Below are positions 1 through 60,995 of a stretch of DNA of 64,000 nucleotides, in pieces. This DNA is from Halichondria panicea. Taxonomy: Eukaryota > Porifera > Demospongiae > Suberitida > Halichondriidae. The position numbers and the translations under genes are program-made. The stretch lies in NCBI RefSeq assembly GCF_963675165.1, contig NC_087381.1, forward strand, positions 1,488,001-1,552,000. The letters run 5' to 3'. Every line of letters begins with the position of its first letter. Positions within the stretch are counted from its first letter, which is position 1. The notes below the pieces were generated by a model. The model was not told the DNA's origin. It worked only from the letters and a program-made list of their open reading frames with translations, and searched no databases.

Positions 1-1381
1 AACCTTGGTAGCAGTTGACAAACATGTCAAGACGTTGACGTTGAATTTTCAAAACATTGAGATATTTCTGGAACCATTTCATTGGATATACAATCAGAAA
101 CACTATAGGAAGTATTACAACAAAAACTCCGACAAACAAAGCTACTATTGCGTACGGAAGATGGTCATGTCCAAAGTATTCCACTGTGGCATCATAGTAA
201 AGGACATACTTTATAACATATTCTCTGCTGTTCGGCTTCAGTACATACATTGTAGTAAATATTAGCAAATCAACAGTAGTGTTGAGAAATTTTAAGTAGG
301 AGAGTAAAAAGAAGGTAGCAAAAGCATTCACAATCGATCCTTCCATATCCCAGTTTTGACCAACTAAACTGAAAACTTTATGAAAAGGTCTCCACAACCA
401 AACAACTATACGCACATCACGGCTATGCAAACTAATGAGAAAGTAAGTCAGAATAACCAGTACCAATGGATAAAAGGCAATAGCATAATCCAAAGCAAAC
501 ACTTGTATTTGACTAATGTCCATTGCACAAATAGGTGGAATGACGGTACGAAAGAAATCCAAATTCCAGATACCATAAAAGCTACCTAAAGCTTTAGTAA
601 ATTTTTCAATATAAACTAATTTCTTTGAAACAACGGAAAGAAAAGCTCTTGAGGCTATAGGTGAAAAGATTCCTTGGGACAAGCCAATGAACAACTTCAG
701 CAAAGGATAAGTTCCGTTAAATTTAAACAGGACAATGAAGAAAAAGAAGAATGTTAATGGAATGTAAGCAACTGCTATGTACTTGATCCAGTTGTAGGTC
801 ATGTTCTCTCCTGTGCAGTTCATGCATTTCATTTCATATGAGTACAAGAGTGGTGAATATCCCGGTAGACACTTCCCACATAGTGTTGAATCGCGGTTCA
901 TATTTCCACAAGAGTATGAATTAAGATTGTCTGTGTTATTTGGAAGTGGATAAAACACAGTGTCCGTTTTATGTCCGCAACCATACACACATCTTCCTAG
1001 TTGAGTTTCATTGCTCTCACTATCGTAAGTCATACAATAGCAATCTAGAATGGATGTCCTGCTGATTTCAACATCACATAGTACAGAGTGAAGTGGAATG
1101 TTACTACATTCACATTTTCCATTTGTTGAATTACGAAACATCCAAGGATAACAATCCAGGTCATGATCTTCGATCACTGTTGAACCAATAGACTTCTTTG
1201 AGCTGAGATCTTTTATTAAACCAGCTGGTGTCGTTGATGTAATTTCACATGGTATTTGTATCTTTGTCCAGCAAGTATTGTTATCCACTGCTTCAGTGTT
1301 TGCTTCTACTGGTACAGAATTAGCAGTAGCAATCATAAGATGAGAGGAGATTGTTAACATTAGGAGGTAATAGAACTCCAT
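1..1381 (-). CDS. Array copy 1: multi-pass membrane protein with Cys-rich ectodomain (3' part beyond window)
   Basis: Reading the minus strand from the ATG at 1381-1379 gives 460 uninterrupted codons, which run off the left edge inside the loop before the YKDGTNGT motif. About 190 C-terminal residues of a normal copy are therefore unseen. The signal peptide begins MEFYYLLMLT, and the ectodomain has the family Cys pattern. The membrane part carries the KKLVYIEKF variant otherwise seen only in the copy at 14362, its closest relative here. It is the only full-type copy in minus orientation, so it and the array to its right are divergent. No defect is visible in the part present. The family role is unknown; see the copy at 9552 for the architecture. 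Confidence 0.85.
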   Translation of the reverse strand, partial: MEFYYLLMLTISSHLMIATANSVPVEANTEAVDNNTCWTKIQIPCEITSTTPAGLIKDLSSKKSIGSTVIEDHDLDCYPWMFRNSTNGKCECSNIPLHSVLCDVEISRTSILDCYCMTYDSESNETQLGRCVYGCGHKTDTVFYPLPNNTDNLNSYSCGNMNRDSTLCGKCLPGYSPLLYSYEMKCMNCTGENMTYNWIKYIAVAYIPLTFFFFFIVLFKFNGTYPLLKLFIGLSQGIFSPIASRAFLSVVSKKLVYIEKFTKALGSFYGIWNLDFFRTVIPPICAMDISQIQVFALDYAIAFYPLVLVILTYFLISLHSRDVRIVVWLWRPFHKVFSLVGQNWDMEGSIVNAFATFFLLSYLKFLNTTVDLLIFTTMYVLKPNSREYVIKYVLYYDATVEYFGHDHLPYAIVALFVGVFVVILPIVFLIVYPMKWFQKYLNVLKIQRQRLDMFVNCYQG

Positions 1382-1449
1382 ATCTAAATCTTATAACTGA
1401 GGGATCTTGTTCTCTATTCGGTAAGCGTAAGCCTATTTAGTAGAGCACC
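1382..1449 (-). promoter_or_regulatory. Flank type A conserved 5' block of copy 1
   Basis: A roughly 68-bp block directly upstream of the ATG reads, on the minus strand, GGTGCTCTACTAAATAGG, then CTTACCGAATAGAG, then CCCTCAGTTATAAGATTTAG. The same block precedes the copies starting at 7458, 14362, 39428 and 51275 and, degraded, the stub at 27738. Conservation against the coding start suggests a proximal promoter or 5' UTR. The identity also reflects duplication history, so function is inference. Confidence 0.4.
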
Positions 1450-1650
1450 AGCGTTCCACTGGTCAAATGTATTGCTTTGGAGATGAAAGTGAAACAGTAA
1501 ACAATAATAGAATGTTTCATTTATGTATTGCACGGAATTTTAATTATGAATACTCTGTTTTCTTTCGTCTGTATGTCTAGTCAACTGAAATAGTCAATCA
1601 ACTGAAATAGTCAACTTGTGTATATGCATTCAATTAAGCCCAAATAGGAT

Positions 1651-1788
1651 GTTTTCGTGGTTGCTGCTTGCACTGCAGGTAAAGGTAGGCAGGTCCCTTC
1701 CATTCGTGGGTAAAATATTCGTGGTCAGACCGTCAATCACGAAAACCACGAATATTTTGCCCCACGAAAATTACCCGCTATACGGTAT
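1651..1788 (-). repeat. Truncated copy of the ATACCG-ended MITE
   Basis: Matches, in reverse orientation, the first two thirds of the 212-bp element at 7065-7276: the end ATACCGTATAGCGGGTAATT, the internal CCACGAATATTTTGCC arms and the CTGCAGTGCAAGCAGC core. The other terminal repeat is missing. An apparent 130-residue plus-strand reading frame across this stretch and the next element (1616-2008) is judged fortuitous. Confidence 0.7.
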
Positions 1789-2247
1789 ATTATATAAAGC
1801 CTCGATCCCAGGCCGAGTTTTCGCTTTTATAACGGTTAGGCGAACAACTAGGCCTGGTACTAGTTGTCTGCGCATGCGTCAGTCGTTGTCAGATTCTGAC
1901 AAATGGATATTCTCGTTCACTTTCGTGACATTTATATTCGTGTACTATCGTGTACTAGAAGTCAGTTCCCGTTTTATCATTATTGGAATCGATTGGAATG
2001 GCTCTTAGCTGAAGCTTCTCTCTTCTCTGAAGCTTATTCTGAAGACTGAACAACAAGGGAAGAGGTATAAAGCTTTGTCAAGCTTGTTAAGGTCAGATAT
2101 TTTTGTGTGGGCCCTATGGCTATGCTATCAAGTCTTGTTCATGTTTGGCAAGATCTACCGGTAGGTAGACTATAGTTTCATCATTAATATGGTGGATCAA
2201 GTGAAGAGTGTGAGAACTTGGTGCTGCCATCATCAGCTCGTCGACAA

Positions 2248-2799: not shown

Positions 2800-2961
2800 C
2801 AAATTTCGATTGTTGATTTATTAAATATTTTTGCCAACCACAAATAATTTTATACAATGAAAATTTGACGCATGCGCAGACAACTAGTACCAGGCCCAGT
2901 TGTTCGCCTAACCGTTATAAAAGCGAAAACTCGGCCTGGGATCGAGGCTATTTAAAATGAT

Positions 2962-3225
2962 ATGGAGTTCTATTACCTCCTAATGTTAGCACTCTATTCA
3001 TATCTTATGATTGCTACTGCTAATTCTTCACCAGTAGAAGCATGCAAACACTGAAGCAGTGGATAACAATACTTGCTGGACAAAGATACAAACATCCTGT
3101 GAAACTTTATCAGCTAGTTTATTGAGTTCAGTGAAGGTTATTGGCTCAACGATAATGAAGATCATGACAAGGATTGTTATCCATTTCGTAATCCCAGAAA
3201 TGAAAAATGTGAATGTAGTAGCATT
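2962..3225 (+). pseudogene. Orphan 5' stub of an array gene
   Basis: Starts ATGGAGTTCTATTACC and follows the family signal peptide and the CWTK region up to the GKCEC block. It carries a 4-nt insertion near 3045 (frame lost after PVEA) and several small deletions, including the WMF codons. Similarity stops at 3225, where the long intergenic repeat begins. A second stub with the same ending is at 31175. Confidence 0.8.
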
Positions 3226-4276: not shown

Positions 4277-6231
4277 ATGGATTTCTTCTATCTTCTAATG
4301 TTAACACTCACTTCACTTCTTATGATTACTACTGCTAATTCTGTACCAGTAGAAGCAAACACTGAAGCAGTGGACAACAATACTTGCTGGACAAAGATAC
4401 AAATACCCTGTGAAACTTTATCAACAACACAAGCTAGTTTAATGAAAGATCTCAGCTCAAAGAAGTCTATTGGTTCAACAGTGATCGAAGATCATGACAT
4501 GGATTGTTATCCGTGGATGTTTCGTAATTCAACAAATGGAAAATGTGAATGTAGTAACATTCCACTTCACTCTGTACTATGTGATGTTGAAATCAGCAGG
4601 ACATCCATTCTTGATTGCTATTGTATGACTTACGATAGTGAGAGCAATGAAACTCAACTAGGAAGATGTGTGTATGGTTGCGGACATAAAACAGACACTG
4701 TCTTTTATACACTTCCAAACAGCACAGACGATCTTAATTCATACTCTTGTGGAAGACTGAACCGCGATTCAACACTGTGTGGGCAGTGTCTACCAGGATA
4801 TTCACCACTCTTGTACTCGTATGAAATGAAATGCATGAACTGCACGGGAGAGAACATGACCTACAACTGGATCAAGTACATAGCAGTTGCTTACATTCCA
4901 TTAACATTTTTCTTTTTCTTTGTCGTAATCTTTAAATTTAACGGAAATTCTCCTTTGCTGAAGTTGTTCATTAGTGTGTCCCAGGGAATCTCTTCACCCA
5001 TAATATAGTGGCAAGAGCTTTTCTTTCAGTTGTTTCAAGGAAAGCTTATATTGAGAATTTCACTAGTGCTTTAGGTAGCTTCTATGGTATCTGGAATTTG
5101 GATTTCTTTCGTACCGTCATTCCACCTATTTGTGCAATGGACATTAGTCAAATACAAGTGTTTGCTTTGGATTATGCTATTGCCTTTTATCCATTGGTAC
5201 TGGTTATTCTGACTTACTTTCTCATTAGTTTGCATAGCCGTGATGTACGTATAGTTGTTTGGTTGTGGAGACCTTTTCATAAGGTTTTCGGTTTAGTTAG
5301 TCAAAGCTGGGATATGGAAGGGTCAATTGTGAATGCTTTTGCTACCTTCTTTTTACTCTCCTACTTAAAGATTCTCAACACTACTACTGATTTGCTAATA
5401 TTTACGAAAATGTATGTACTGAAAGACAACAGCAAAGAATACGCTAAAAAGCATGTACTTTACTATGATGCCACAGTAGAATACTTGGGACAAGAACATC
5501 TTCCGTACGCAATAGTAGCTTTGTTTGTCGGAGTTTTCATTGTAATACTTCCTATAGTGTTTCTGATTGTATATCCAATGAAATGGTTTCAGAAATTTCT
5601 CAATGCTTTGAAAATTCAGCGTCAACGCCTTGACATGTTTGTCAACTGCTACCAAGGTTACTACAAGGACGGAACAAATGGTACCAGAGATTATCAATGG
5701 TTTTCTGTGTCATACTTCATATTTCAGCTGATTATGTTCGTACTATTCACAGTCACGCAAAGTATCTATTGTTTTTCTATTGGAGCGTTATTCACAGTTA
5801 CTCTCATATTTATGCACCTTTCATAACGACCATACAAGGAAGAATTCAAAGTTTACGACATAACAGATGCCTTAATGCTACTAAGTATGAGTGGAGTGTT
5901 CATTATGGCAATCGCAGGAGATGAAGCTGACATCAAAGCTTCTTACTTCAGTACATTTTCTTATTCATTTCTAGCACTCCTTGGAATTATCCCGATAATC
6001 TACTTTCTTGTAGTAACTATTTGGTGGCTCCTGGTAAAGAAACAACTCAAAACTTGGTGCATCAGCAAACTTCGTAGCTTTCGAGCTCAGCCTGAAATCC
6101 CACAAATTGAAGAGTCGTTTTCAGACAGTGATATTCCACACAGGTTGGAAAATCCATCAGATTACTCATCACCAAATACCCCACTGATTTCTGCCACTGG
6201 AAAAGATGCAAAGTATGGCTCCGTTGCTTGA
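4277..6231 (+). pseudogene. Array copy 2: full-length but disrupted
   Basis: Covers the whole family length. Relative to the copy at 9552, a net 5-nt insertion at about 5001-5008 (between CCCAT and GGCAAG) makes a stop after SPI and shifts the frame. A T-to-A change at 5824-5826 then gives TAA in the conserved LSLRPYKEEF segment. The rest is nearly identical to 9552-11504 from about residue 98 onward, while the first third matches the MDFFY type with KDLSSKKSIGST. It is therefore a mosaic. The reading frame downstream of the stop (to 6231, ending GSVA) is otherwise intact, so inactivation looks recent; assembly error at two sites is less likely. Confidence 0.85.
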
Positions 6232-7457: not shown

Positions 7458-8307
7458 ATGGAGTTCTATTACCTCCTAATGTTAACAACCTCCTCTCATC
7501 TTGTGATTGCTACTGCTAATTCTGTACCAGTAGAAGTAAACACTGAAGTAGTGGATAACAATACTTGCTGGACAACGGTACAAATACCCTGTGAAACTTC
7601 ACCAACCACACAAACTGGTTTAAGAAGAAGTATCAGCTCAGAGAAGTTCATTGGCTCAAAGGTAATCGAAGATCGTTACATGGATTGTTATCCATGGATG
7701 TTTCGTAATTCAATAAATGGAAAATGTGAATGTAGTAGCATTCCACATCACTCTGTACTTTGTGATGCTGAAATGGTTTTCTGTGACTTACTTTTTTCTT
7801 CAGCTGATTGTGTTCGTACTATTTACGTTCTCGCAAAGTATCTATTGTTTTTCTATCGCAGTGTTATTCATAATTACCCTCATGTTTATGCAACTCTCAC
7901 TACGACCATACAAGGAAGAATTCAAAGTGTACGACATAACAGATGCCTTCATGCTACTGATTCTTAGTGGAGTGTTCATTATGATAATCGCGGGAGATGA
8001 AGCTGACATCAAAGCTTCCTACTTTAGTCAATTTTCTTATTCATTTCTAGCCCTCATTGCAATTGTCCCGATAATCTACTTTCTTGTAGTAACTATTTGG
8101 TGGCTCTTGGTAAGGAAACAATTCAAAACTTGGTGCATAAACAAACTTCTTAGCTTTCGAGCTCAGCCTGAAACTCCACAAATTGAAGAGTCATTTTCAG
8201 AGAGTGATATTCCACACCGGTTAGAGAATCCATCAGATTACTCATCATCAAATACCTCGCTGATATCTGCCCCAGGAAAAGATTCGAAGTATGGCTCTGT
8301 TGCTTAA
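7458..8307 (+). pseudogene. Array copy 3: large internal deletion
   Basis: The first 104 or so codons (MEFYYLLMLT to SVLCDAE) are normal. The sequence then jumps within GCTGAAATGGTTTTC to the TM5 region (WFSVTYFF) of the family and continues to GSVA at 8307 in a different frame. About 370 codons covering most of the ectodomain and TM1-TM4 are lost, leaving a frameshift. The breakpoint shows at most 2 bp (AT) of microhomology. Both halves are otherwise well preserved and resemble the copy at 14362. Confidence 0.9.
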
Positions 8308-9551: not shown

Positions 9552-11504
9552 ATGGAGTTCCTTTACCTACTATTGTTAACTCTCTCTTCCCATCTTATGA
9601 TTGCTACTGCTAATTCTTCACCAGTAGAAGCAAACACTGAAGCAGTGGATAACAATACTTGCTGGACAAAGATACAAATACCATGTGAAACTTTATCAAC
9701 GACACAAAATGGTTTAATAAGAAGAGGTATCAGCTCAGAGAAGTTCATTGGCTCAAAGGTAATCGAAGATCATGACATGGATTGTTATCCATGGATGTTT
9801 CGTAATCCCATAAATGGAAAATGTGAATGTAGTAACATTCCACTTCACTCTGTACTATGTGATGTTGAAATCAGCAGGACATCCATTCTTGATTGCTATT
9901 GTATGACTTACGATAGTGAGAGCAATGAAACTCAACTAGGAAGATGTGTGTATGGTTGCGGACATAAAACAGACACTGTCTTTTATACACTTCCAAATAG
10001 CACAGACGATCTTAATTCATACTCTTGTGGAAGACTGAACCGCGATTCAACACTGTGTGGGCAGTGTCTACCAGGATATTCACCACTCTTGTACTCGTAT
10101 GAAATGAAATGCATGAACTGCACGGGAGAGAACATGACCTACAACTGGATCAAGTACATAGCAGTTGCTTACATTCCATTAACATTTTTCTTTTTCTTTG
10201 TCGTAATCTTTAAATTTAACGGAAATTCTCCTTTGCTAAAGTTGTTCATTAGTGTGTCCCAGGGAATCTCTTCACCCATTGCGGCAAGAGCTTTTCTTTC
10301 AGTTGTTTCAAGGAAAGCTTATATTGAGAATTTCACTAGTGCTTTAGGTAGCTTCTATGGTATCTGGAATTTGGATTTCTTTCGTACCGTCATTCCACCT
10401 ATTTGTGCAATGGACATTAGTCAAATACAAGTGTTTGCTTTGGATTATGCTATTGCCTTTTATCCATTGGTACTGGTTATTCTGACTTACTTTCTCATTA
10501 GTTTGCATAGCCGTGATGTACGTATAGTTGTTTGGTTGTGGAGACCTTTTCATAAGGTTTTCGGTTTAGTTAGTCAAAGCTGGGATATGGAAGGGTCGAT
10601 TGTGAATGCTTTTGCTACCTTCTTTTTACTCTCCTACTTAAAGATTCTCAACACTACTACTGATTTGCTAATATTTACGAAAATGTATGTACTGAAAGAC
10701 AACAACAAAGAATACGCTAAAAAGCACGTACTTTACTATGATGCCACAGTAGAATACTTGGGACAAGAACATCTTCCGTACGCAATAGTAGCTTTGTTTG
10801 TCGGAGTTTTCATTGTAATACTTCCTATAGTGTTTCTGATTGTATATCCAATGAAATGGTTTCAGAAATTTCTCAATGCTTTGAAAATTCAGCGTCAACG
10901 CCTTGACATGTTTGTCAACTGCTACCAAGGTTACTACAAGGACGGAACAAATGGTACCAGAGATTATCGATGGTTTTCTGTGTCATACTTCATATTTCAG
11001 CTGATTATGTTCATACTATTCACAGTCACGCAAAGTATCTATTGTTTTTCTATTGGAGCGTTATTCACAGTTACTCTCATATTTATGCACCTTTCATTAC
11101 GACCATACAAGGAAGAATTCAAAGTTTATGACATAACAGATGCCTTCATGCTACTAAGTATGAGTGGAGTGTTCATTATGGCAATCGCAGGAGATGAAGC
11201 TGACATCAAAGCTTCTTACTTCAGTACATTTTCTTATTCATTTCTAGCACTCCTTGGAATTATCCCGATAATCTACTTTCTTGTAGTAACTATTTGGTGG
11301 CTCCTGGTAAAGAAACAACTCAAAACTTGGTGCATCAGCAAACTTCGTAGCTTTCGAGCTCAGCCTGAAATCCCACAAATTGAAGAGTCGTTTTCAGACA
11401 GTGATATTCCACACAGGTTGGAAAATCCATCAGATTACTCATCACCAAATACCCCACTGATTTCTGCCACTGGAAAAGATGCAAAGTATGGCTCCGTTGC
11501 TTGA
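9552..11504 (+). CDS. Array copy 4 (reference): signal peptide, Cys-rich ectodomain, 8-9 TM protein, 650 aa
   Basis: Single exon. Residues 1-21 form a signal peptide (MEFLYLLLLTLSS). Residues 22-197 form an ectodomain with 15 Cys (37, 45, 78, 91, 93, 103, 115, 117, 132, 136, 159, 169, 172, 187, 190), including CGQCLPGYSP and CMNCTG. Sequons lie at about 34, 125, 149, 189 and 194. Hydrophobic segments by eye: 199-221, 292-318, 349-376, 409-432, 476-492, 496-515, 529-547 and 560-586, plus a weak one at 228-255. The loop at 455-470 holds NCYQGYYKDGTNGT. The tail 587-650 is basic, then Ser/acidic (EESFSDSD). An 8-TM count puts the tail outside and 9 TM puts it inside. A plasma-membrane receptor or channel-like role is inference. 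I recognise no named family with confidence. Confidence 0.9.
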   Translation: MEFLYLLLLTLSSHLMIATANSSPVEANTEAVDNNTCWTKIQIPCETLSTTQNGLIRRGISSEKFIGSKVIEDHDMDCYPWMFRNPINGKCECSNIPLHSVLCDVEISRTSILDCYCMTYDSESNETQLGRCVYGCGHKTDTVFYTLPNSTDDLNSYSCGRLNRDSTLCGQCLPGYSPLLYSYEMKCMNCTGENMTYNWIKYIAVAYIPLTFFFFFVVIFKFNGNSPLLKLFISVSQGISSPIAARAFLSVVSRKAYIENFTSALGSFYGIWNLDFFRTVIPPICAMDISQIQVFALDYAIAFYPLVLVILTYFLISLHSRDVRIVVWLWRPFHKVFGLVSQSWDMEGSIVNAFATFFLLSYLKILNTTTDLLIFTKMYVLKDNNKEYAKKHVLYYDATVEYLGQEHLPYAIVALFVGVFIVILPIVFLIVYPMKWFQKFLNALKIQRQRLDMFVNCYQGYYKDGTNGTRDYRWFSVSYFIFQLIMFILFTVTQSIYCFSIGALFTVTLIFMHLSLRPYKEEFKVYDITDAFMLLSMSGVFIMAIAGDEADIKASYFSTFSYSFLALLGIIPIIYFLVVTIWWLLVKKQLKTWCISKLRSFRAQPEIPQIEESFSDSDIPHRLENPSDYSSPNTPLISATGKDAKYGSVA

Positions 11505-14361: not shown

Positions 14362-16305
14362 ATGGAGTTCTATTACCTCTTAATGTTAACAACCTCCTCT
14401 CATCTTGTGATTGCTACTGCTAATTCTGTACCAGTAGAAGCAAACACTGAAGCAGTGGATAACAATACTTGCTGGACAACAGTACAAATACCCTGTGAAA
14501 CTTCACCAACCACACAAACTGGTTTAATAAAAGATCTCAGCTCAAAGAAGTCTATTGGTTCAACAGTGATCGAAGATCATTACCTGGATTGTTATCCTTG
14601 GATGTTTCGTAATTCAACAAATGGAAAATGTGAATGTAGTAACATTCCATATCGCTCTGTACTATGTGATGTTGAAATCAGCAGGACATCCATTCTTGAT
14701 TGCTATTGTATGACTTACGATAGTGAGAGCAATGAAACTCAACTAGGAAGATGTGTGTATGGTTGCGGACATAAAACGGACACTGTGTTTTATCCACTTC
14801 CAAATAACACAGACAATCTTAATTCATACTCTTGTGGAAATATGAACCGCGATTCAACACTGTGTGGGAAGTGTCTACCAGGATATTCACCACTCTTGTA
14901 CTCATATGAAATGAAATGCATGAACTGTACGGGAGAGAGTATGACCTACAATTGGATCAAGTACATAGCAGTTGCTTACATTCCATTAACATTTTTCTTT
15001 TTCTTCATTGTCATGTTTAAATTTAACGGAACTTATCCTTTGCTGAAGTTGTTCATTGGCTTGTCCCAAGGAATCTTTTCACCTATAGCCTCAAGAGCTT
15101 TTCTTTCCATTGTTTCAAAGAAATTAGTTTATATTGAAAAATTTACTAGAGCTTTAGGTAGCTTTTATGGTATCTGGAATTTGGATTTCTTTCGTACCGT
15201 CATTCCACCTATTTGTGCAATGGACATTAGTCAAATACAAGTGTTTGCTTTGGATTATGCTATTGCCTTTTATCCATTGGTACTGGTTATTCTGACTTAC
15301 TTTCTCATTAGTTTGCATAGCCGTGATGTGCGTATAGTTGTTTGGTTGTGGAGACCTTTTCATAAAGTTTTCAATTTAGTTGGTCAAAACTGGGATATGG
15401 AAGGATCGATTGTGAATGCTTTTGCTACCTTCTTTTTACTCTCCTACTTAAAATTTCTCAACACTACTGTTGATTTGCTAATATTTACTAGAATGTATGT
15501 ACTGAAGCCGAACAGCAAAGAATATGTTATAAAGCATGTACTTTACTATGATGCCACAGTGGAATTCTTTGGACATGACCATCTTCCGTATGCAATAGTA
15601 GCTTTGTTTGTCGGAGTTTTTGTTGTAATACTTCCTATAGTGTTTCTGATTGTATATCCAATGAAATGGTTCCAGAAATGTCTCAATGTTTTGAAAATTC
15701 AACGTCAACGTCTTGACATGTTTGTCAACTGCTACCAAGGTTACTACAAGGATGGAACGAATGGTACCAGAGATTATCGATGGTTTTCTGTGGCATACTT
15801 TCTTCTTCAGATGATTCTGTTCGTACTATTCTCAGTCTCGCTAAGTATCTATTGTTTTTCTATTGGAGTGTTATTCACAATTACCCTCATGTTTATGCAA
15901 CTTTCATTACGACCATACAAGGAAGAATTCAAAGTGTATAACATAACAGATGCTTTCATGCTGCTGATTCTTAGTGGAGTGTTTATTATGGCAATCGCAG
16001 GAGATGAAGCTGGCATCAAAGCTTCCTACTTCAGTACATTTTCTTATTCGGTACTAGCACTCATTGCAATTTTCCCGATGATCTACTTTTTTGTAGTAAC
16101 TATTTGGTGGCTCTTGATAAAGAAACAACTCAAAACTTGGTGCATTAGCAAATTTCGTAGCTTTCGTGCTCAACCAGAAATCCCACAAATTGATGAGTCA
16201 TTTTCGGAGAGTAATATTCTAGAGAATCCATCAGATTACTCATCATCAAATACCCCGCTGATTTCTGCCCCAGGAAAAGATTCAAAGTATGGCTCTGTTG
16301 CTTAA
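14362..16305 (+). CDS. Array copy 5: multi-pass membrane protein, 647 aa
   Basis: Open throughout with the family architecture. Specific features: signal peptide MEFYYLLMLTTSSHLV; variable ectodomain stretch TTVQIPCETSPTTQ and KDLSSKKSIGST; loss of the NMT sequon before TM1 (GESMTYNW); the VSKKLVYIEKF variant after TM1, one residue longer than usual; TM5 read as VAYFLLQMILFVLFSV; and a 3-residue deletion in the tail (SESNILENPS in place of DIPHRLENPS). It ends GSVA. Copies 1 and 3 are its nearest relatives in the N-terminal third. It forms a two-gene unit with the next copy, parallel to copies 3 and 4. Confidence 0.9.
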   Translation: MEFYYLLMLTTSSHLVIATANSVPVEANTEAVDNNTCWTTVQIPCETSPTTQTGLIKDLSSKKSIGSTVIEDHYLDCYPWMFRNSTNGKCECSNIPYRSVLCDVEISRTSILDCYCMTYDSESNETQLGRCVYGCGHKTDTVFYPLPNNTDNLNSYSCGNMNRDSTLCGKCLPGYSPLLYSYEMKCMNCTGESMTYNWIKYIAVAYIPLTFFFFFIVMFKFNGTYPLLKLFIGLSQGIFSPIASRAFLSIVSKKLVYIEKFTRALGSFYGIWNLDFFRTVIPPICAMDISQIQVFALDYAIAFYPLVLVILTYFLISLHSRDVRIVVWLWRPFHKVFNLVGQNWDMEGSIVNAFATFFLLSYLKFLNTTVDLLIFTRMYVLKPNSKEYVIKHVLYYDATVEFFGHDHLPYAIVALFVGVFVVILPIVFLIVYPMKWFQKCLNVLKIQRQRLDMFVNCYQGYYKDGTNGTRDYRWFSVAYFLLQMILFVLFSVSLSIYCFSIGVLFTITLMFMQLSLRPYKEEFKVYNITDAFMLLILSGVFIMAIAGDEAGIKASYFSTFSYSVLALIAIFPMIYFFVVTIWWLLIKKQLKTWCISKFRSFRAQPEIPQIDESFSESNILENPSDYSSSNTPLISAPGKDSKYGSVA

Positions 16306-17569: not shown

Positions 17570-19522
17570 ATGGAGTTCCTTTACCTACTATTGTTAACTC
17601 TCTCTTCCCATCTTATGATTGCTACTGCTAATTCTTTACCAGTAGAAGCAAACACTGAAGCAGTGTATAACAATACTTGCTGGACAAAGATACAAATACC
17701 CTGTGAAACTTTATCAATGACACAAAATGGTTTAATAAGAAGAGGTATCAGCTCAGAGAAATTCATTGGCTCAAAGGTAATCGAAAATCATGACATGGAT
17801 TGTTATCCTTGGATGTTTCGTAATCCCATAAATGGAAAATGTGAATGTAGTAACATTCCACATCACTCTGTACTATGTGATGTTGAAATCAGCAGGACAT
17901 CCATTCTTGACTGCTATTGTATGACTTATGATAGTGAGAGCAATGAAACTCAACTAGGAAGATGTGTGTATGGTTGCGGACATAAAACAGACACTGTCTT
18001 TTATACACTTCCAAATAACACAGATGATCTTAATTCATACTCTTGTGGAAGACTGAACCGTGATTCAACACTGTGTGGGAAGTGTCTACCAGGATATTCA
18101 CCACTCTTGTACTCGTATGAAACGAAATGCATGAACTGTACGGGAGAGAACATGACCTACAACTGGATCAAGTACATAGCAGTTGCTTACATTCCATTAA
18201 CATTTTTCTTTTTCTTTGTCGTAATCTTTAAATTTAACGGAAATTCTCCTTTGCTGAAGTTGTTCATTAGTGTGTCCCAGGGAATCTTTTCACCCATAGC
18301 GGCAAGAGCTTTTCTTTCAGTTGTTTCAAGGAAAGCTTATATTCAGAATTTAACTAAAGCTTTAGGTAGCTTTTATGGTATCTGGAATTTGGATTTCTTT
18401 CGTACTGTCATTCCACCTATTTGTGCGACGGACATTAGTCAAACACAAGTGCTTGCTTTGGATTATGCTATTGCCTTTTATCCATTGGTACTGGTTATTC
18501 TGACTTACTTTCTCATTAGTTTGCATAGCCGTGATGTACGTATAGTTGTTTGGTTGTGGAGACCTTTTCATAAGGTTTTCAGTTTAGTTAGTCAAAGCTG
18601 GGATATAGAAGGGTCGATTGTGAATGCTTTTGCTACCTTCTTTTTACTCTCCTACTTAAAATTTCTCAACACTACTACTGATTTGCTAATATTTACGAAA
18701 ATGTATGTACTGAAAGACAACAGCAAAGAATACGCTAAAAAGGATGTACTTTACTATGATGCCACAGTAGAATACTTGGGACAAGAACATCTTCCGTACG
18801 CAATAGTAGCTTTGTTTGTCGGAGTTTTCATTGTAATACTTCCTATAGTGTTTCTGATTGTATATCCAATGAAATGGTTTCAGAAATGTCTCAATGCTTT
18901 GAAAATTCAGCGTCAACGCCTTGATATGTTTGTCAACTGCTACCAAGGTTACTACAAGGACGGAACAAATGGTACCAGAGATTATCGATGGTTTTCTGTG
19001 TCATACTTCATATTTCAGCTGATTATGTTCGTACTATTCACAGTCACGCAAAGTATCTATTTTTTTTCTATTGGAGCGTTAGTCACAGTTACTCTCATGT
19101 TTATGCACCTCTCATTACGACCATATAAGGAAGAATTCAAAGTGTATGACATAACAGATGCCTTAATGCTACTAAGTATGAGTGGAGTGTTCATTATGGC
19201 AATCGCAGGAGACGAAGCTGGCATCAAAGCTTCCTACTTCAGAACATTTTCTTATTCATTTCTAGCCCTCATTGCAACTGTTCCGATGATCTACTTTCTT
19301 GTAGTAACTATTTGGTGGCTCCTGGTAAAGAAACAATTCAAAACTTGGTGCATCAGCAAACTTCGTAGCTTCCGTACTCCGCCTGAAAATCCACAAATTG
19401 ATGAGTCATTTTCAGAGAGTGATATTCCACACCGGTTAGAAAATCCATCAGATTACTCCTCTCCAAATATCCCACTGATTTCTGCCATTGGAAAAGATGC
19501 AAAGTATGGCTCAGTTGCTTGA
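17570..19522 (+). CDS. Array copy 6: multi-pass membrane protein, 650 aa
   Basis: Closest to the copy at 9552 and of identical length. Differences include AVYNNTCW (D to Y), MTQNGL, IENHDMDC, YETKC before TM1, FSPIAARAF with IQNLTKALG after it, the IYFFS variant that loses the usual Cys in TM6, and a tail reading RTPPENPQIDESF. It ends GSVA, and the TGA is followed by codons that would read SVI in the same frame. Its flanks switch from the type seen after 9552 to the repeat-R1 type, so the 3' side has a different duplication history from the 5' side. Confidence 0.9.
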   Translation: MEFLYLLLLTLSSHLMIATANSLPVEANTEAVYNNTCWTKIQIPCETLSMTQNGLIRRGISSEKFIGSKVIENHDMDCYPWMFRNPINGKCECSNIPHHSVLCDVEISRTSILDCYCMTYDSESNETQLGRCVYGCGHKTDTVFYTLPNNTDDLNSYSCGRLNRDSTLCGKCLPGYSPLLYSYETKCMNCTGENMTYNWIKYIAVAYIPLTFFFFFVVIFKFNGNSPLLKLFISVSQGIFSPIAARAFLSVVSRKAYIQNLTKALGSFYGIWNLDFFRTVIPPICATDISQTQVLALDYAIAFYPLVLVILTYFLISLHSRDVRIVVWLWRPFHKVFSLVSQSWDIEGSIVNAFATFFLLSYLKFLNTTTDLLIFTKMYVLKDNSKEYAKKDVLYYDATVEYLGQEHLPYAIVALFVGVFIVILPIVFLIVYPMKWFQKCLNALKIQRQRLDMFVNCYQGYYKDGTNGTRDYRWFSVSYFIFQLIMFVLFTVTQSIYFFSIGALVTVTLMFMHLSLRPYKEEFKVYDITDALMLLSMSGVFIMAIAGDEAGIKASYFRTFSYSFLALIATVPMIYFLVVTIWWLLVKKQFKTWCISKLRSFRTPPENPQIDESFSESDIPHRLENPSDYSSPNIPLISAIGKDAKYGSVA

Positions 19523-41388: not shown

Positions 41389-41808
41389 TTGTATACTAAA
41401 GTTGACTATAATTATTAGTATATAGTGTACTGTCTAGTGTAGCTTCCTTTGGCATTTTTATACTCAGACCGATTTTTATGAAAAGACAACTCGGCCTGGG
41501 ATCGAAGTTTAAAAAAAAAAAAGTTTACGTGTCTTATTATAATTATGCTCGGCGGGGGAAGAAGAGAGAAAAGTAATCCTAAACTCTACTTGATTTTGTC
41601 CCCAATTTGATTAGCCTAGGTTTGGCCCCCATATTATAATATTCTTATACAGCACAGAGTAGCCCGAGCCCGACTCCACTACCAAGAGCGCGTATTGACG
41701 AAGTCATAATTGTCAGTAGTGGGCTCATAATCACTGATGACAAATTCTGGCGATGTCATTGTCTAATGAGTAATGGCAGTACTCATGCAGAGGAGGTCAG
41801 ACATGCGT
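41389..41808 (+). other. Spacer paired with 59793-60214
   Basis: Near-identical in both places: GGCATTTTTATACTCAGACC, CTCGGCCTGGGATCGAAG, an A run at 41512-41522 (10 residues in the other copy), and GAGCGCGTATTGACG. No gene. Confidence 0.6.
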
Positions 41809-43030
41809 GCTTACATTCCTTTAACATTCTTTCATAATTTTTAAATTTAACGAAACTTTTCCTTTGCTGAAGTTGTTCATTGGTGTGTCCCAGGGACTTT
41901 TTTCACCTATTTCCATTCGAGCTTTTCTTTCTGTCATTTCAGGGAAGGCGTACATTGAGAATTTCTATAGGCTGCACCCTATAGCACCTGGAATTTGGAT
42001 TTCTTTCGTACTGTCATTCCACCTATTTGTGCGACCGAAATCAGTCAAATACAGGTGCTTGCTTTGGACTATGCAATTGCCTTTTATCCATTGGTACTGG
42101 TTATTCTGACTTACTTTCTCATTAGTTTGCATAGCCGTGATGTACGTATAGTTGTTTGGTTGTGGATACCTTTTCATAAGGTTTTCGGTTAAGTTAGTCA
42201 AAGCTGGGATATGGAAGGGTCGATGGTGAATGCTTTTGCTACCTACTTTTTTACTTTCTTACTTCGATGTTACTGCTGACTTGCTTTTATTCACCAAAAT
42301 ATACATGGTAAAAGCAAACAGCAAAGAATACACCATAAATCATGTTTTTTACTATGATGCCACAGTGGAATTCTTTGGACATGACCATCTTCTGTACGCA
42401 ATAGTAGCTTTGTTTGTCGGAGTTTTTGTCATAATACTTCCTATAGTGTTTTTGATCATAATTATATCCAATGAAATAGTTTCAGAAAAAATTCAGCATC
42501 AACTGCTACCAAGGTTTCCACAAGGATGGAACGAATGGCACCACACATTATCAATGGTTTTCTGTGACTGGCTTTCTTCTTCATCTAATTCTTATTACAG
42601 TCTCACAAACTATCTATTTTTATTCAATCGGAGTCTTAGTCGTAGTCATCCTCATGTTTTTACACCTCTCATTGCGACCATACAAGGAAGAATTAAAGTG
42701 TATAACATAACAGATGCCTTCATGCTACTGATTTTTAGTGGAGTGTTTATTATGGCAATCGCAGGAGATGAAGCTGACATCAAAGCTTCCTACTTCAGTA
42801 CATTTTCTTATTCGTTTCTAGCACTCATTAGAATTGTCCTAATAATCAGTGTTGATCATTTGGTGGCTCCTGGTAAAGAAACAACTCAAAACCTGGTGCA
42901 TAAGCAAATTTCACAGCTTTAGAGCTCCTGAAAATCCACAATCATTTTCAGACAGTGCTATTTCACACCCGGTAATCTAATGGATTACTCCTCATCAAAT
43001 ACCCCGCTGATTTCTGTAACATCAAAATAA
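41809..43030 (+). pseudogene. Array fragment lacking the ectodomain
   Basis: Starts at the TM1 codons (AYIPLTFF equivalent) with no signal peptide or Cys-rich part. Frames are broken repeatedly: a deletion in the Phe run near 41830, a shortened segment near 41970, a stop at about 42190, a lost stretch at about 42480-42520 where KIQRQRLDMFVN is missing, and indels to the tail at 43030. The first 430 bp are nearly identical to 60215-60640; beyond 42245 the two differ. Confidence 0.85.
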
Positions 43031-46284: not shown

Positions 46285-48243
46285 ATGGATTTCTTCTATC
46301 TCCTAATGTTAACACTCACTTCGCTTCTTATGATTACTACTACTGATTCTGTAACAGTAGAAGCAAACACTGAAGCAGTGGATAACAATACTTGCTGGAC
46401 AAAGGTACAAATACAAATACCCTGTGAAACTTCATCAACAACACAAACTGGTTTATTGAAAGATCTCAGCTCAGCTCAGTCTATTGGTTCAATGGTTCTC
46501 AATAATCACGATTTCATGGACTGTTATCCTTGGATGTTTCGTAATCCCAGAAATGGAAAATGTGAATGTAGTAACATTCCATATCACTCTGTACTATGTG
46601 ATGTTGAAATCAGCAGGACATCCATTCTTGATTGCTATTGTATGACTTATGATAGTGAGAGCAATGAAACTCAATTAGGAAGATGTGTGTATGGTTGCGG
46701 ACATAAAAGAGACACTGTGTTTTATCCACTTCCAAATAACACGGACGATCTTAATTCATACTCTTGTAAAAAAGTGAACCGCGATTCAACACTGTGTGGG
46801 AAGTGTCTACCAGGATATTCACCACTCTTGTACTCGTATGAAATGAAATGCATGAACTGCACAGGAGAGAACATGACCTACAACTGGATCAAGTACATAG
46901 CAGTTGCTTACATTCCATTAACATTCTTTTTTTTCTTCGTTGTAATCTTCAAATTCAATGGAACTTCACCAATGCTGAAAGGTTTCATTAGTATTTCCCA
47001 AGGACTTGTTTCACCTATATCTGCAAGAGCTTTTCTTTCTGTTATTTCAAGGAAAGCTTATATTGAGAATTTCACTAGAGCTTTAAGTAGCTTTTATGGC
47101 ATCTGGAATTTAGATTTCTTTCGTACTGTCATTCCACCTATTTGTGCGACGGACATCAGTCAAATACAAGTGCTTGCTTTGGACTATGCTATTGCCTTTT
47201 ATCCATTGGTGCTGGTTATTCTGACTTACTTTCTCATTAGTTTGCATAGCCGTGATGTACGTATAGTTGTTTGGTTGTGGAGACCTTTTCATAAGGTTTT
47301 CAGTTTAGTTAGTCATAGCTGGGATATGAAAGGATCGATTGTGAATGCTTTTGCTACCTTCTTTTTACTCTCCTATTTAAAATTTCTCAACACTACTACT
47401 GAGTTGCTAATATTCACGACAGTATATGTACTGAAGGACAACAGCAAAGAATACGATATAAAGCATGTACTTTACTATGATGCCACGATGAAATACTTGG
47501 GACATGAACATCTTCCATATGCAATAGTAGCTTTGTTTGTCGGAGTTTTTGTTGTAATATTTCCAATAGTGTTTCTGATTGTATATCCAATGAACTGGTT
47601 TCAAAAATGTCTCAATTCTTTAAAAATTCAGCGTCAACGTTTTGACATGTTTGTCAACTGTTTTCAAGGTTACTACAAGGATGGAACGAATGGTACCAGA
47701 GATTATCGATGGTTTTCTGTGTCATGCTTTCTTCTTCAGCTGATTATGTTCGTACTATTCTCATTCTCGCAAAGTATCTATTGTTTTTCTTTTGGAGCGT
47801 TAGTCACAGTTACTCTCATGTTTATGCAACTTTCGTTACAACCATACAAGGAAGAATTCAAAGTGTATAACATAACAGATGCCTTCATGCTACTGATTTT
47901 TAGTGGAATGTTCATTATGGCAATCGCGGGAGACGAAGCTGACATCAAAGCTTCCTACTTCAGTGCATTTTCTTATTTGATTCTAGCACTCATTGCAATT
48001 GTCCCGATAATCTACTTTCTTGTAGTAACTATTTGGTGGCTCCTGGTAAAGAAACAACTCAAAACTTGGTGCGTAAGCAAATTTCGTAGCTTTCGTGCTC
48101 CACCTGAAATCCCACAAATTGAAGAGTCTTTTTCAGAGAGTGATATTCCACACCGGTTAGAGAATCCATCAGATTACTCCTCACCAAATACCCCGCTGAT
48201 TTCTGCCACTGGAAAAGGTGCAAAGTATGGCTCAGTTGCTTAA
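46285..48243 (+). CDS. Array copy 12: multi-pass membrane protein, 652 aa
   Basis: Open throughout. Features: signal peptide MDFFYLLMLTLTSLLM followed by ITTTDSVTVEAN; IQ repeated in KVQIQIPCETSS; divergent hypervariable stretch LSSAQSIGSMVLNNHDFMDC; NPRNGKCEC; GHKRDTVFYPL; SYSCKKVNRDS; SWDMKGSIV (charge change from E to K); YPMNWFQ; QRFDMFVNCFQGYY; and IFSGMFIMAIAG. The tail RAPPEIPQIEESF ends GSVA at TAA, as at 35632, and the 3' flanks of these two match. Confidence 0.9.
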   Translation: MDFFYLLMLTLTSLLMITTTDSVTVEANTEAVDNNTCWTKVQIQIPCETSSTTQTGLLKDLSSAQSIGSMVLNNHDFMDCYPWMFRNPRNGKCECSNIPYHSVLCDVEISRTSILDCYCMTYDSESNETQLGRCVYGCGHKRDTVFYPLPNNTDDLNSYSCKKVNRDSTLCGKCLPGYSPLLYSYEMKCMNCTGENMTYNWIKYIAVAYIPLTFFFFFVVIFKFNGTSPMLKGFISISQGLVSPISARAFLSVISRKAYIENFTRALSSFYGIWNLDFFRTVIPPICATDISQIQVLALDYAIAFYPLVLVILTYFLISLHSRDVRIVVWLWRPFHKVFSLVSHSWDMKGSIVNAFATFFLLSYLKFLNTTTELLIFTTVYVLKDNSKEYDIKHVLYYDATMKYLGHEHLPYAIVALFVGVFVVIFPIVFLIVYPMNWFQKCLNSLKIQRQRFDMFVNCFQGYYKDGTNGTRDYRWFSVSCFLLQLIMFVLFSFSQSIYCFSFGALVTVTLMFMQLSLQPYKEEFKVYNITDAFMLLIFSGMFIMAIAGDEADIKASYFSAFSYLILALIAIVPIIYFLVVTIWWLLVKKQLKTWCVSKFRSFRAPPEIPQIEESFSESDIPHRLENPSDYSSPNTPLISATGKGAKYGSVA

Positions 48244-57842: not shown

Positions 57843-59792
57843 ATGGATTTCTTCTATCTCCTAATGTTAACACTCAATTCGCTTCTTATGATTGCTACTG
57901 CTAATTCTGTGCCAGTAAAAGCAAACACTGAAGCAGTGGATAACAATACTTGCTGGACAAAGATACAAATACCCTGTGAAACTTTATCAACAACACAAGC
58001 TAGTTTAATGAAAGATTTGAGTTCAGAGAAGTTTATTGGTTCAATGGTAATCGAAGATCATGACATGTCTTGTTATCCGTGGATGTTTCGTAATTCAACA
58101 AATGGAAAATGTGAATGTAGTAACATTCCATATCGCTCTATACTATGTGATGCTGAAATCAGTAGGACATCCATTCTTGATTGCTATTGTATGACTTACG
58201 ATAGTGAGAGCAATGAAACTCAATTAGGAAGATGTGTGTATGGTTGCGGGCATAAAACAGATACTGTGTTTTATCTACTTCCAAATAACACAGACGATCT
58301 TAATACATACTCTTGTGGAAGAATGAACCGCGATTCAACACTGTGTGGGCAGTGTCTACCAGGATATTCACCACTCTTGTACTCGTATGAAATGAAATGC
58401 ATGAACTGCACTGGAGAGAACATGACCTACAACTGGATTAAGTACATAGCAGTTGCTTACATTCTTTTAACATTCTTCTTTTTCTTCGTCGTAATCTTTA
58501 AATTCAATGGAACTTCACCAATGCTGAAAGGTTTCATTAATATTTCCCAAGCACTTGTTTCACCTATAGCTGCAAGAGCTTTTCTTTTTGTTACTTCAAG
58601 GAAAGCTTATATTAGAGCTTTTGATACCTTTTATGGTATCTGGAGTTTGGATTTCTTTCGTACCGTCATTCCACCTATTTGTGCGACGGACATCAGTCAA
58701 ATACAAGTGCTTGCTTTGGACTATGCTATTGCCTTTTATCCATTGGTACTGGTTATTCTGACTTACTTTCTCATTAGTTTGCATGGCCGTGATGTACGTA
58801 TAGTTGTTTGGTTGTGGAGACCTTTTCATATGTTTTTCAGTTTAGTTAGTCAAAGCTGGGATATGGAAGGGTCGATCGTGAATGCTTTTGCTACCTTCTT
58901 TTTACTATCCTACTTAAAATTTCTCAACACTACTATTGAGTTATTAGTATTTACTAGAATGTATGTACTGGAAGCTAACAGCAAAGAATATGTTATAAAG
59001 TATGTACTTTACTATGATGCCACAGTGGAATTCTTTGGACGCGAACATCTTCCGTATGCAATAGTAGCTTTGTTTGTTGGAGTTTTTGCTGTAATACTTC
59101 CTATAGTGTTTCTGATCATATATCCGATGAAATGGTTTCAGAAGTGTCTTAATGCTTTGAAAATTCAGCGTCAACGTCTTGACATGTTTGTCAACTGTTA
59201 CCAAGGTTACTACAAGGATGGAACGAATGGTACCAGAGATTATCGATGGTTTTCTGTGGCATTCTTTATTCTTCAGATGATTGTGTTCGTACTATTTACA
59301 TTATCGCAAAGTATCTATTGTTGTTCTATTGGAGCGTTAGTCACAGTTACTCTCATGTTTATGCAACTTTCGTTACGACCATACAAGGAAGAATTCAAAG
59401 CGTACAACATAACAGATGCCTTCATGCTACTGATTCTTAGTGGACTGCTCATTATGATAATCGCAGAAGATGAAGCTGGCATCAAAGCTTCCTACTTCAG
59501 TACATTTTCTCATTTGATTCTAGCACTCATTGGAATTATCCCAACCATCTATTTTTTTGCGTTGATCATTTGGTTGCTTCTGGTAAAGAAACATCTCAAA
59601 ACTTGGTGCATAAGCAAATTTCGGAGCTTTCGAGCTCAGCCTGACATCCCACAAATTGAAGAGTCATTTTCAGAGAGTGATATTCCACATCGGTTAGAGA
59701 ATCCATCAAATTACTCCTCTCCAAATACCCCGCTGATTTCTGCCCCCCAAAAAGATGCAAAGTATGGCTCAACAGTTGTTCCAGAGCCATGA
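57843..59792 (+). CDS. Array copy 14: multi-pass membrane protein, 649 aa
   Basis: Intact. Features: VPVKANTEAV; SSEKFIGSMVIED with MSCYPWMFRN; YRSILCDAE; FYLLPNNTDDLNTY; AYILLTFF in TM1; shortened segment FVTSRKAYIRAFDTFYG; SLHGRDVR; RPFHMFFSLV; IYCCSIGAL; KAYNITD; IIAEDEAGIKAS, where E replaces the G of GDEA; and ALIIWLLLVKKHLK. The tail QPDIPQIEESF ends KYGSTVVPEP. It is the intact partner of the pseudogene at 39428 over the last two thirds, which shows what that copy lost. Confidence 0.9.
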   Translation: MDFFYLLMLTLNSLLMIATANSVPVKANTEAVDNNTCWTKIQIPCETLSTTQASLMKDLSSEKFIGSMVIEDHDMSCYPWMFRNSTNGKCECSNIPYRSILCDAEISRTSILDCYCMTYDSESNETQLGRCVYGCGHKTDTVFYLLPNNTDDLNTYSCGRMNRDSTLCGQCLPGYSPLLYSYEMKCMNCTGENMTYNWIKYIAVAYILLTFFFFFVVIFKFNGTSPMLKGFINISQALVSPIAARAFLFVTSRKAYIRAFDTFYGIWSLDFFRTVIPPICATDISQIQVLALDYAIAFYPLVLVILTYFLISLHGRDVRIVVWLWRPFHMFFSLVSQSWDMEGSIVNAFATFFLLSYLKFLNTTIELLVFTRMYVLEANSKEYVIKYVLYYDATVEFFGREHLPYAIVALFVGVFAVILPIVFLIIYPMKWFQKCLNALKIQRQRLDMFVNCYQGYYKDGTNGTRDYRWFSVAFFILQMIVFVLFTLSQSIYCCSIGALVTVTLMFMQLSLRPYKEEFKAYNITDAFMLLILSGLLIMIIAEDEAGIKASYFSTFSHLILALIGIIPTIYFFALIIWLLLVKKHLKTWCISKFRSFRAQPDIPQIEESFSESDIPHRLENPSNYSSPNTPLISAPQKDAKYGSTVVPEP

Positions 59793-60214
59793 TTGTATAC
59801 TAAAGTTGACTATAATTATTAGTATATAGTGTACTGTCTAGTGTAGCTTCCTTTGGCATTTTTGTACTCAGACCGATTTTTATGAAAAGACAACTCGGCC
59901 TGGGATCGAAGTTTAAAAAAAAAAAGTTTACGTGTCTTATTATAATTATGCTCGGCGGGGGAAGAAGAAGAGAGGAAAGTAATCCTAAACTCTACTTGAT
60001 TTTGTCCCCAATTTGATTAGCCTAGGTTTGGCCCCCATATTATAATATTCTTATACAGCACAGAGTAGCCCGAGCCCGACTCCACTACCAAGAGCGCGTA
60101 TTGACGAAGTCATAATTGTCAGTAGTGGGCTCATAATCACTGATGACAAATTCTGGCGATGTCATTGTCTAATGAGTAATGGCAGTACTCATGCAGAGGA
60201 GGTCAGACATGTGT
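59793..60214 (+). other. Spacer paired with 41389-41808
   Basis: Near-identical over its full length, continuing into the truncated fragment that follows in both places. Confidence 0.6.
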
Positions 60215-60764
60215 GCTTACATTCCTTTAACATTCTTTCATAATTTTTAAATTTAACGAAACTTTTCCTTTGCTGAAGTTGTTCATTGGTGTGTCCCAGG
60301 GACTTTTTTCACCTATTTCCATTCGAGCTTTTCTTTCTGTCATTTCAGGGAAGGCGTACATTGAGAATTTCTATAGGCTGCACCCTATAGCACCTGGAAT
60401 TTGGATTTTTTTCGTACTGTCATTCCACCTATTTGTGCGACGGAAATCAGTCAAATACAGGTGCTTGCTTTGGACTATGCTATTGCCTTTTATCCATTGG
60501 TACTGGTTATTCTGACTTACTTTCTCATTAGTTTGCATAGCCGTGATGTACGTATAGTTGTTTGGTTGTGGATACCTTTTCATAAGGTTTTCAGTTTAGT
60601 TAGTCAAAGCTGGGATATGGAAGGGTCGATGGTGAATGCTTTTGCTACCTTCTTTTTACTCTCCTATTTAAAATTTCTCAACACTACTACTGAGTTACTA
60701 ATATTCACGACAGTATATGTACTGAAGGACAACAGCAAAGAATACGATATAAAGCATGTACTTT
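60215..60764 (+). pseudogene. Array fragment, TM1 to post-TM3, cut at both ends
   Basis: Begins like 41809 with the same small deletions. From about 60580 it follows the intact copy at 46285 instead (KVFSLVSQSWDMEG, NTTTELLIFTTVYV) and stops inside CATGTACTTT. The next bases belong to an inverted fragment. Confidence 0.85.
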
Positions 60765-60769
60765 GATTA

Positions 60770-60995
60770 TACGAAAGAAATCTAAATTCCAGATGCCATA
60801 AAAGCTACCTAAAGCTCTAATGAAATTCTCAATATAAGCTTTCCTTGAAATAACAGAAAGAAAAGCTTTTGCAGATATAGGTGAAACAAGTCCTTGGGAA
60901 ATACTAATGAAACCTTTCAGCATTGGTGAAGTTCCATTGAATTTGAAGATTACAACGAAGAAAAAGAAGAATGTTAAAGGAATGTAAGCAACTGC
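60770..60995 (-). pseudogene. Inverted array fragment at the array edge
   Basis: Reverse-complemented, it reads from AVAYIPLTFF to GIWNLDFFR, including MLKGFISISQGLVSPISAKAF, closest to the copy at 46285. It joins the plus-strand fragment at 60765-60769 (GATTA) and meets Sin3-like sequence at about 60996. Confidence 0.85.

What the first reader, a model, noticed from the sequence alone, without database searches (positions are those of the whole stretch)
1..60995. Large array of an unnamed single-exon receptor-like family
Seen: at least 11 open copies and more than 10 pseudogenes or fragments of one 645-658-codon gene fill 61 kb. Each has a signal peptide, 15-Cys ectodomain, 8-9 hydrophobic segments and acidic Ser tail. 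Known: dense arrays of intronless membrane proteins with high turnover are typical of chemosensory, immune or recognition receptors. Inferred: this is a lineage-specific expanded surface-protein family whose function is undescribed. The conserved NCYQGYYKDGTNGT and RDVR/WRPF landmarks offer handles for finding relatives.
Basis: partly seen in the sequence, partly recalled or inferred. Interest (0 to 1): 0.85.

Follow-up and report, generated by a model that had tools for sequence, protein, structure and literature searches.

The report
Array of shortened beta-helix receptor-like genes
An animal genome carries a dense array of single-exon genes for multi-pass surface proteins, and these prove to be a trimmed branch of a far larger unnamed family, many of whose members wear a long beta-helix domain outside the cell.

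Summary
The array is real: 10 intact 645-658-codon ORFs and about 10 broken copies, part of a 137-kb array with outliers elsewhere. Synonymous divergence between the window's intact copies is 0.08-0.30, so they are not assembly duplicates. Fourteen short proteins scanned singly reach no Pfam cut-off, and PDB profile searches find nothing related. A weak DUF7630 hit led to the main finding: the window genes belong to a superfamily of at least 326 loci, broken ones included, on all 17 large contigs. Many relatives are giants, uninterrupted ORFs of about 1170-1600 codons, with a beta-helix ectodomain and the same Cys-rich region and transmembrane core. In trees, short forms nest within giants twice; a single short clade is rejected. 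The window subfamily keeps a probable relic of the beta-helix N-cap (not significant in a first test). A tail motif marks 49 of 53 short proteins and none of 18 giants. Best reading: expanded surface recognition receptors, window copies having lost the outer domain. Function is inferred; phylum untested.

The parts
2..1381 (-). partial copy, inverted, cut by the window edge
   Evidence: 95% identical to copy 14362 over residues 1-460
2962..3225 (+). fragment (N-terminal part, frame-broken)
4277..6228 (+). full-length copy with a frame break near 5002 and a stop in the 3' part; 5' piece best matched by copy 32322 (93%), 3' piece by copy 9552 (98.5%)
7458..8304 (+). internally deleted copy (residues 1-106 then 468-645)
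9552..11504 (+). intact ORF, 650 aa: hydrophobic N-terminus, probable beta-helix N-cap relic, Cys-rich region, multi-TM core, tail with PHRLENPSDY
14362..16305 (+). intact ORF, 647 aa (tail motif altered)
17570..19522 (+). intact ORF, 650 aa
20516..21355 (+). C-terminal fragment with stops and a frame break
24690..26633 (+). intact ORF, 647 aa
28289..30265 (+). intact ORF, 658 aa
31200..31283 (+). small fragment
32322..34292 (+). intact ORF, 656 aa
35632..37569 (+). intact ORF, 645 aa
39428..41385 (+). full-length copy with frame breaks
41810..43027 (+). degraded copy (about residues 209-639)
46285..48243 (+). intact ORF, 652 aa
51275..53245 (+). intact ORF, 656 aa (tail motif altered)
57843..59792 (+). 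intact ORF, 649 aa
60240..60763 (+). fragment of the TM core, near-copy of part of the 41.8-kb relic
60765..61025 (-). inverted fragment of the TM core; last trace of the array seen inside the window

Best explanation
The array encodes short cell-surface proteins with an outside N-terminus and a probable cytosolic C-terminus. They derive from giant beta-helix/Cys-rich/multi-TM proteins by loss of roughly 600 residues of beta-helix. SHOWN: homology of the Cys-rich and TM parts to the giants; nesting of short forms inside giants with two changes of form; DNA-level tandem duplication with recombination-type site patterns; purifying selection. SUPPORTED, with one negative test: an N-cap relic in the window subfamily. 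INFERRED: that the changes are losses; that the giants bind extracellular, probably glycan-type, ligands through the beta-helix; that the Cys-rich region and TM core (probably 9 helices, N-out, C-in) pass on the signal; that in the main short clade the tail motif [PA][DH]RxxNPxxY recruits one shared cytosolic partner. The short forms would work as stripped receptors: either recognition through the Cys-rich region and the loops, or signalling partners of the giants. Overall role proposed: a large recognition repertoire, for microbes, self/non-self or chemical cues.
For: Profile-profile match of the window-type alignment A2 to the giants' Cys+TM region (A3): probability 99.9, E 2.9e-31, 412 columns. 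A single-sequence search with the Cys+TM part of giant L047 finds window genes at E down to 5.9e-23, 26% identity over about 430 aa. Ectodomains: 8 of 18 giants exceed the Pfam cut-off for Beta_helix or Chlam_PMP, and each of the other 10 matches one of those 8 by blastp at E <= 2.7e-12. Trees of 51 and 38 rows each need 2 changes between giant and short; a single short clade is rejected, p-AU 1e-54. N-cap relic: L001 scores 60 against sister giant L064, shuffled mean 26.6, 0 of 500 as high; window copy 28289 scores 44 against L063, mean 27.5, 2 of 500. A tblastn of 18 giant ectodomains against the window and 45 short loci gives one hit at E <= 0.01, at that N-terminus (L064 against L002, E 0.001); in the control 18 of 18 giant loci are hit by another giant's ectodomain. 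Tail motif: 49 of 53 short proteins outside the L055/L056 pair, 0 of 2 of that pair, 0 of 18 giants (one of them, L044, ends before the tail); 0 of 10,600 shuffled tails. At least 326 loci, 363 with DUF7630-only places. Incompatible sites within 100 bp: 0.317 against 0.411 permuted, 0 of 300 permutations as low. Median dN/dS 0.34 over 190 pairs of 20 copies.
Against: No function, ligand, expression or localisation was tested. No region shows dN/dS clearly above 1. The N-cap relic was not significant against a first set of 12 giants (34 and 52 of 300 shuffles as high); it became so only against four sister giants fetched afterwards. The tail motif was written from these same sequences. The trees carry long-branch warnings, and trees do not give the direction of change. 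The structure prediction failed (mean pLDDT 31.8), so the TM count and fold are unconfirmed. Transcripts were not seen, so 'single-exon' means an uninterrupted genomic ORF.
Confidence: 0.5

Rival explanations
1. Chemosensory receptors: the short proteins detect small molecules with the TM core and loops, like the large insect or nematode chemoreceptor families.
For: Dense tandem array of uninterrupted ORFs, about as many broken as intact copies; among 20 intact copies the N-terminal region, residues 225-268 and several TM helices carry many replacements.
Against: No GPCR or chemoreceptor model among the Pfam hits listed; many members of the superfamily carry a beta-helix ectodomain, more typical of glycan or surface binding (recalled).
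Confidence: 0.2
2. Ion-channel-like or exocytosis-triggering sensors: the TM core gates ions or triggers secretion on contact, as proposed for the CRMP proteins of ciliates and apicomplexans.
For: Similar layout in the giants: extracellular adhesive-type domain, Cys-rich region, several C-terminal TM helices, probable cytosolic C-terminus (CRMP layout from PMC9670195; here).
Confidence: 0.15
3. Short forms are co-receptors or decoys that pair with the giants through the shared TM core, and have no ligand of their own.
For: Two separate short groups among giants; the tail motif is seen only in the main short group; the Cys-rich/TM unit is shared with the giants.
Against: The giants have their own tails; no interaction data.
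Confidence: 0.15
4. Artefact or junk: assembly duplicates or retrocopies without function.
For: No introns in the ORFs; about as many broken as intact copies.
Against: dS between the window's copies 0.08-0.30, and median dN/dS 0.34 over 20 copies; flanking DNA is shared for up to 1.8 kb between some pairs, which retrocopies would not show; diverged relatives at hundreds of loci also sit in long open frames.
Confidence: 0.03

Closest known systems
Pfam DUF7630 (PF24633)
   Same: A 45-column model that matches the Cys-rich stretch (C..RxGxLCGxCxxGxS..C..C) of giants, sub-threshold or just over its cut-off.
   Different: It covers only that stretch and has no function; the one paper search for the name found none. 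Window proteins scanned did not hit it.
Right-handed beta-helix / Chlamydia PMP repeat proteins (PF13229, PF02415)
   Same: The giants' ectodomains score over cut-off in 8 of 18; L037, L038, L040 and L041 show GGx rungs, many 25-27 aa apart.
   Different: Chlamydia PMPs are bacterial autotransporters (recalled). Here the helix is joined to a Cys-rich region and a multi-TM core, and the window copies lack it.
Cysteine repeat modular proteins (CRMPs) of apicomplexans and ciliates
   Same: Extracellular adhesive domain, Cys-rich region, multiple C-terminal TM helices, C-terminus in the cytosol (PMC9670195: passages and section 11 read).
   Different: Homology not testable here; apicomplexan CRMPs carry MAR/Kringle domains and the families named there are small.
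Expanded animal surface receptors such as sponge and sea-urchin SRCR genes
   Same: Large tandem expansion: 296 sponge SRCR genes, 158 of them in arrays (PMC10855680, passages read).
   Different: Those genes have introns and SRCR domains; no SRCR model was among the Pfam hits listed here.

Membership tests
G-protein-coupled receptors | match to a Pfam 7TM family | tested here: not met
   no 7TM model among the hits listed, at E limits 1, 0.1 and 0.01
G-protein-coupled receptors | seven transmembrane helices | tested here: inconclusive
   hydropathy and charge of a 38-row alignment suggest 9 crossings, N-out/C-in; no usable structure
TRP / polycystin-like channels | match to a Pfam TRP or PKD channel model | tested here: not met
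   none listed; no related PDB sequence
TRP / polycystin-like channels | pore-forming fold | not testable with these tools
   structure model failed
CRMP proteins | extracellular adhesive domain + Cys-rich region + C-terminal multi-TM with cytosolic tail | tested here: inconclusive
   layout met by the giants, beta-helix absent in window copies; tail location inferred only
CRMP proteins | sequence homology to CRMPs | not tested
   no CRMP sequence available
Beta-helix/Cys-rich/TM superfamily described here | homologous Cys-rich + TM core | tested here: met
Beta-helix/Cys-rich/TM superfamily described here | beta-helix ectodomain present | tested here: not met
   window copies lack it; at most an N-cap relic remains
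DUF7630 (PF24633) | score over curated cut-off (27 bits) | tested here: inconclusive
   9 of 131 places in the genome marked over cut-off, 5 of them only with their neighbours in the frame, none in the window; hmmscan of giants gives at most 21.9 bits; window proteins show no hit

The most novel reading that the evidence does not exclude
An undescribed, genome-wide recognition system of an animal (phylum untested, early-branching by guess): more than 300 loci for beta-helix/Cys-rich/9-TM surface receptors encoded in uninterrupted ORFs, diversified by tandem duplication, recombination and changing beta-helix rung number. Branches have shed the ligand-binding helix at least twice; the larger one kept a tail motif and forms a class of short partner or signalling receptors.
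Probability: 0.35. Interest if true: 0.85.

Novelty: new variant of a known kind. Interest (0 to 1): 0.62.

Why it matters
How animals without a nervous system or adaptive immunity recognise microbes, kin and chemical cues is largely open (general knowledge). A repertoire of this size with no named family would be a major unstudied part of such a genome: at least 326 loci, broken ones included, in 131 Mb, compared with 296 SRCR genes reported for a sponge. The repeated change of the outer domain, with the core kept, gives a natural experiment for separating ligand binding from signalling.

Tried and rejected
Assembly-duplicate reading: rejected by dS 0.08-0.30 among the window's copies. Retrocopy reading: rejected by shared flanks. 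Named-family reading: Pfam scans of 5 window ORFs (3 intact copies, 2 from broken copies) and 9 relatives give only sub-cut-off hits; PDB profile searches give nothing related. Prokaryotic or viral origin: no relatives found in viral contigs, prokaryotic genomes or phages; the contig scans rest on short peptide patterns, so they are limited. Structure: one AlphaFold2 job from the 10 window proteins gave mean pLDDT 31.8; no fold search was run on it, and the second job was not used, because the more diverse sequences came from the fetch from genomes, which is not among the sources that tool lists. N-cap relic: the first test, against 12 giants, was not significant; a second, against four sister giants fetched for the purpose, was, and one search agrees. 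Positive selection: regional and sliding dN/dS gave none. RNA fold of one 5' leader: nothing. Papers: eight searches aimed at such a family, one at CRMPs and one at DUF7630; I saw no description of this family in the listings, which show only the best-ranked papers of an open-licence PubMed Central library.

Rows dropped: L039 (mostly N) and L046 (broken ORF) from the trees and the tail and ectodomain counts. The tree of 51 rows also leaves out L024 (partial), L044 (ORF ends inside the core) and 11 near-duplicates, and takes 5 of the 10 window genes; the tree of 38 drops 17 further rows, mostly near-duplicates, and adds 4 giants.
Full report
WHAT IS IN THE WINDOW. Ten ORFs of 645-658 aa lie on the + strand between 9552 and 59792. 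The other nine are 82-94% identical to the first. Ten further places hold broken or partial copies (15 aligned pieces), including inverted ones at both ends. A tRNA-Ser lies just beyond. The window is G000:C5:1,488,001-1,552,000 of a 131-Mb, 39-contig genome, and the array continues to both sides, C5:1,435,564-1,572,558, with further close copies at C5:1.23 Mb, C8 and C15.

EVOLUTION OF THE ARRAY. Twenty intact copies (10 in the window and 10 fetched) have median dS 0.228, dN 0.076 and dN/dS 0.34 over 190 pairs. The lowest ratios are in TM1 (0.08) and the YYKDGT loop (0.09). Higher ratios are in the N-terminal part (0.54), 225-268 (0.46), the loop 377-406 (0.51) and the last helix (0.59). The ratio of 0.94 in 319-346, and the highest 21-codon window (1.02, residues 16-36), come with very low pS, and no region is clearly above 1. 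Self-comparison shows similarity running different distances past the genes: 9552 and 17570 share about 1.8 kb upstream, 35632 and 46285 about 1.5 kb downstream. This fits DNA-level tandem duplication with shifting breakpoints. Incompatible site pairs within 100 bp are rarer (0.317) than after permutation (0.411, 0 of 300 as low), a sign of recombination or gene conversion (296 sites).

NO NAMED FAMILY. Pfam gives no hit over cut-off for 5 window ORFs or 9 relatives, both at E up to 1. Over the 22 members of A4, 10 families appear at E up to 0.1, and only DUF7630 recurs (8 members, best E 7e-5); cut-offs are not shown there. PDB profile searches find nothing related.

THE SUPERFAMILY. The sub-threshold DUF7630 hit of one relative (E 0.037) was used to search the genome: 131 places, many inside open frames of 1000-1700 codons; 9 are marked over the model's cut-off, 5 of those only with their neighbours. 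Fetched giants are uninterrupted ORFs of about 1170-1600 codons: hydrophobic N-terminus, long beta-helix ectodomain, a Cys-rich stretch (CPxGF...C.C...RxGxLCGxC...C..C), the TM core and a tail. Two are imperfect: L044 ends inside the core, and the N-terminus of L058 lies in another frame. Of 18 giants scanned, 8 exceed the Pfam cut-off for Beta_helix or Chlam_PMP; the ectodomains of the other 10 each match one of those 8 at E <= 2.7e-12. Homology of the core to the window family is shown by profile comparison (probability 99.9, E 2.9e-31, 412 columns) and by direct search from giant L047 to window genes (E down to 5.9e-23, 25-28% identity). Merging the places of eight searches gives 363 loci, 326 without those seen by DUF7630 alone. 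They lie on all 17 large contigs; 316 are matched over at least 350 codons, 284 of these with no internal stop flagged; 268 of 363 lie within 30 kb of another. These are lower bounds, since each search scores only its best candidates.

CHANGE OF THE ECTODOMAIN. In trees of 51 and of 38 rows, short and giant forms need two changes, both forced by well-supported branches. The main short clade, which holds the window, groups with giants L063/L064 (support 96/94), and short L055/L056 sit inside another giant clade (100/99). Holding all short rows together is rejected (p-AU 1e-54). The program warns of long branches in both trees. Trees do not by themselves give direction; because giants lie on both sides and are paraphyletic as drawn, two losses is the simplest reading. 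The window subfamily seems to keep a relic: the N-terminal 'YVxx...C...PC.SL' stretch of L001 scores 60 against giant L064 (shuffled mean 26.6, 0 of 500), and window copy 28289 scores 44 against L063 (2 of 500). An earlier test against 12 mostly more distant giants was not significant (34 and 52 of 300). A tblastn of 18 giant ectodomains against the window and 45 short loci gave a single hit at E <= 0.01, at this same stretch (L002), while all 18 giant loci were hit in the control. So no other beta-helix remnant was seen in the window, or in the DNA held upstream of the short genes (about 2 kb for L048-L056, a few hundred bases for most others).

TOPOLOGY AND TAIL. Averaged hydropathy and charge over 38 rows fit about nine crossings, with the N-terminus outside and the C-terminus inside (inference). 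Several Cys, Arg and Tyr positions of the Cys-rich and TM parts are invariant or nearly so across the superfamily rows. The motif [PA][DH]RxxNPxxY, written from these sequences (the script allowed N, H, Y or K before the P), occurs in the tails of 49 of 53 short proteins (missing in L028, L029 and window copies 14362 and 51275), 0 of 2 of the L055/L056 pair and 0 of 18 giants (L044 lacks a tail), and in 0 of 10,600 shuffled tails. The 53 include near-duplicates, so this counts sequences, not events.

ORGANISM. Ten Wnt exon matches in three regions, with 0 of 14 control genomes matching, indicate an animal (that Wnt is confined to animals is recalled).

MECHANISM. Shown: surface-type architecture, shared core, two changes of ectodomain, purifying selection, recombination-type patterns. 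Inferred: loss as the direction, ligand binding by the giants' beta-helix, signalling through the core, a shared effector on the short clade's tail, and a role in recognition. CRMP proteins (PMC9670195: passages and section 11 read) work in a comparable way by layout; homology is untested.

LITERATURE. Eight searches aimed at such a family and one for DUF7630 showed no description of it in their listings. Passages were read in PMC9670195, PMC12716839, PMC4302439, PMC11526382 and PMC10855680.

Corrected: aligned pieces (15, not 14), DUF7630 places over cut-off (9 of 131), worst ectodomain link (2.7e-12), scope of the Pfam and paper claims.

Noticed in passing
L040, L041 (G000 C14 and C4): Giant ectodomains with 22 and 20 GGx rungs, many at 25-27 aa spacing; rung number differs between paralogues, a possible source of diversity.
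   Followed up: partly
window about 35530-35600 and matching places upstream of several other copies: A stretch ending in 'tgtgcag' some 75 bp before the ATG resembles a 3' splice site, so a 5' UTR intron is possible.
   Followed up: no
window 41500-43027 and 59800-60764: Two near-identical blocks with the same lead-in, each followed by a similar broken TM-core copy.
   Followed up: no
window 61368-61450: tRNA-Ser (AGA), minus strand, just past the array.
   Followed up: no
G000 C6: 80 of the 363 superfamily loci lie on this one contig, many of them in giant-sized frames.
   Followed up: no
L037, L038, L040, L041 tails: These giants carry a PPxY-type motif (PPYT) in the tail, a possible WW-domain ligand (recalled motif).
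   Followed up: no
L063 (C16), L064 (C2), L058 and L062 (C13), L065 (C12): Giants closest to the main short clade; useful for dating the change of the ectodomain.
   Followed up: partly
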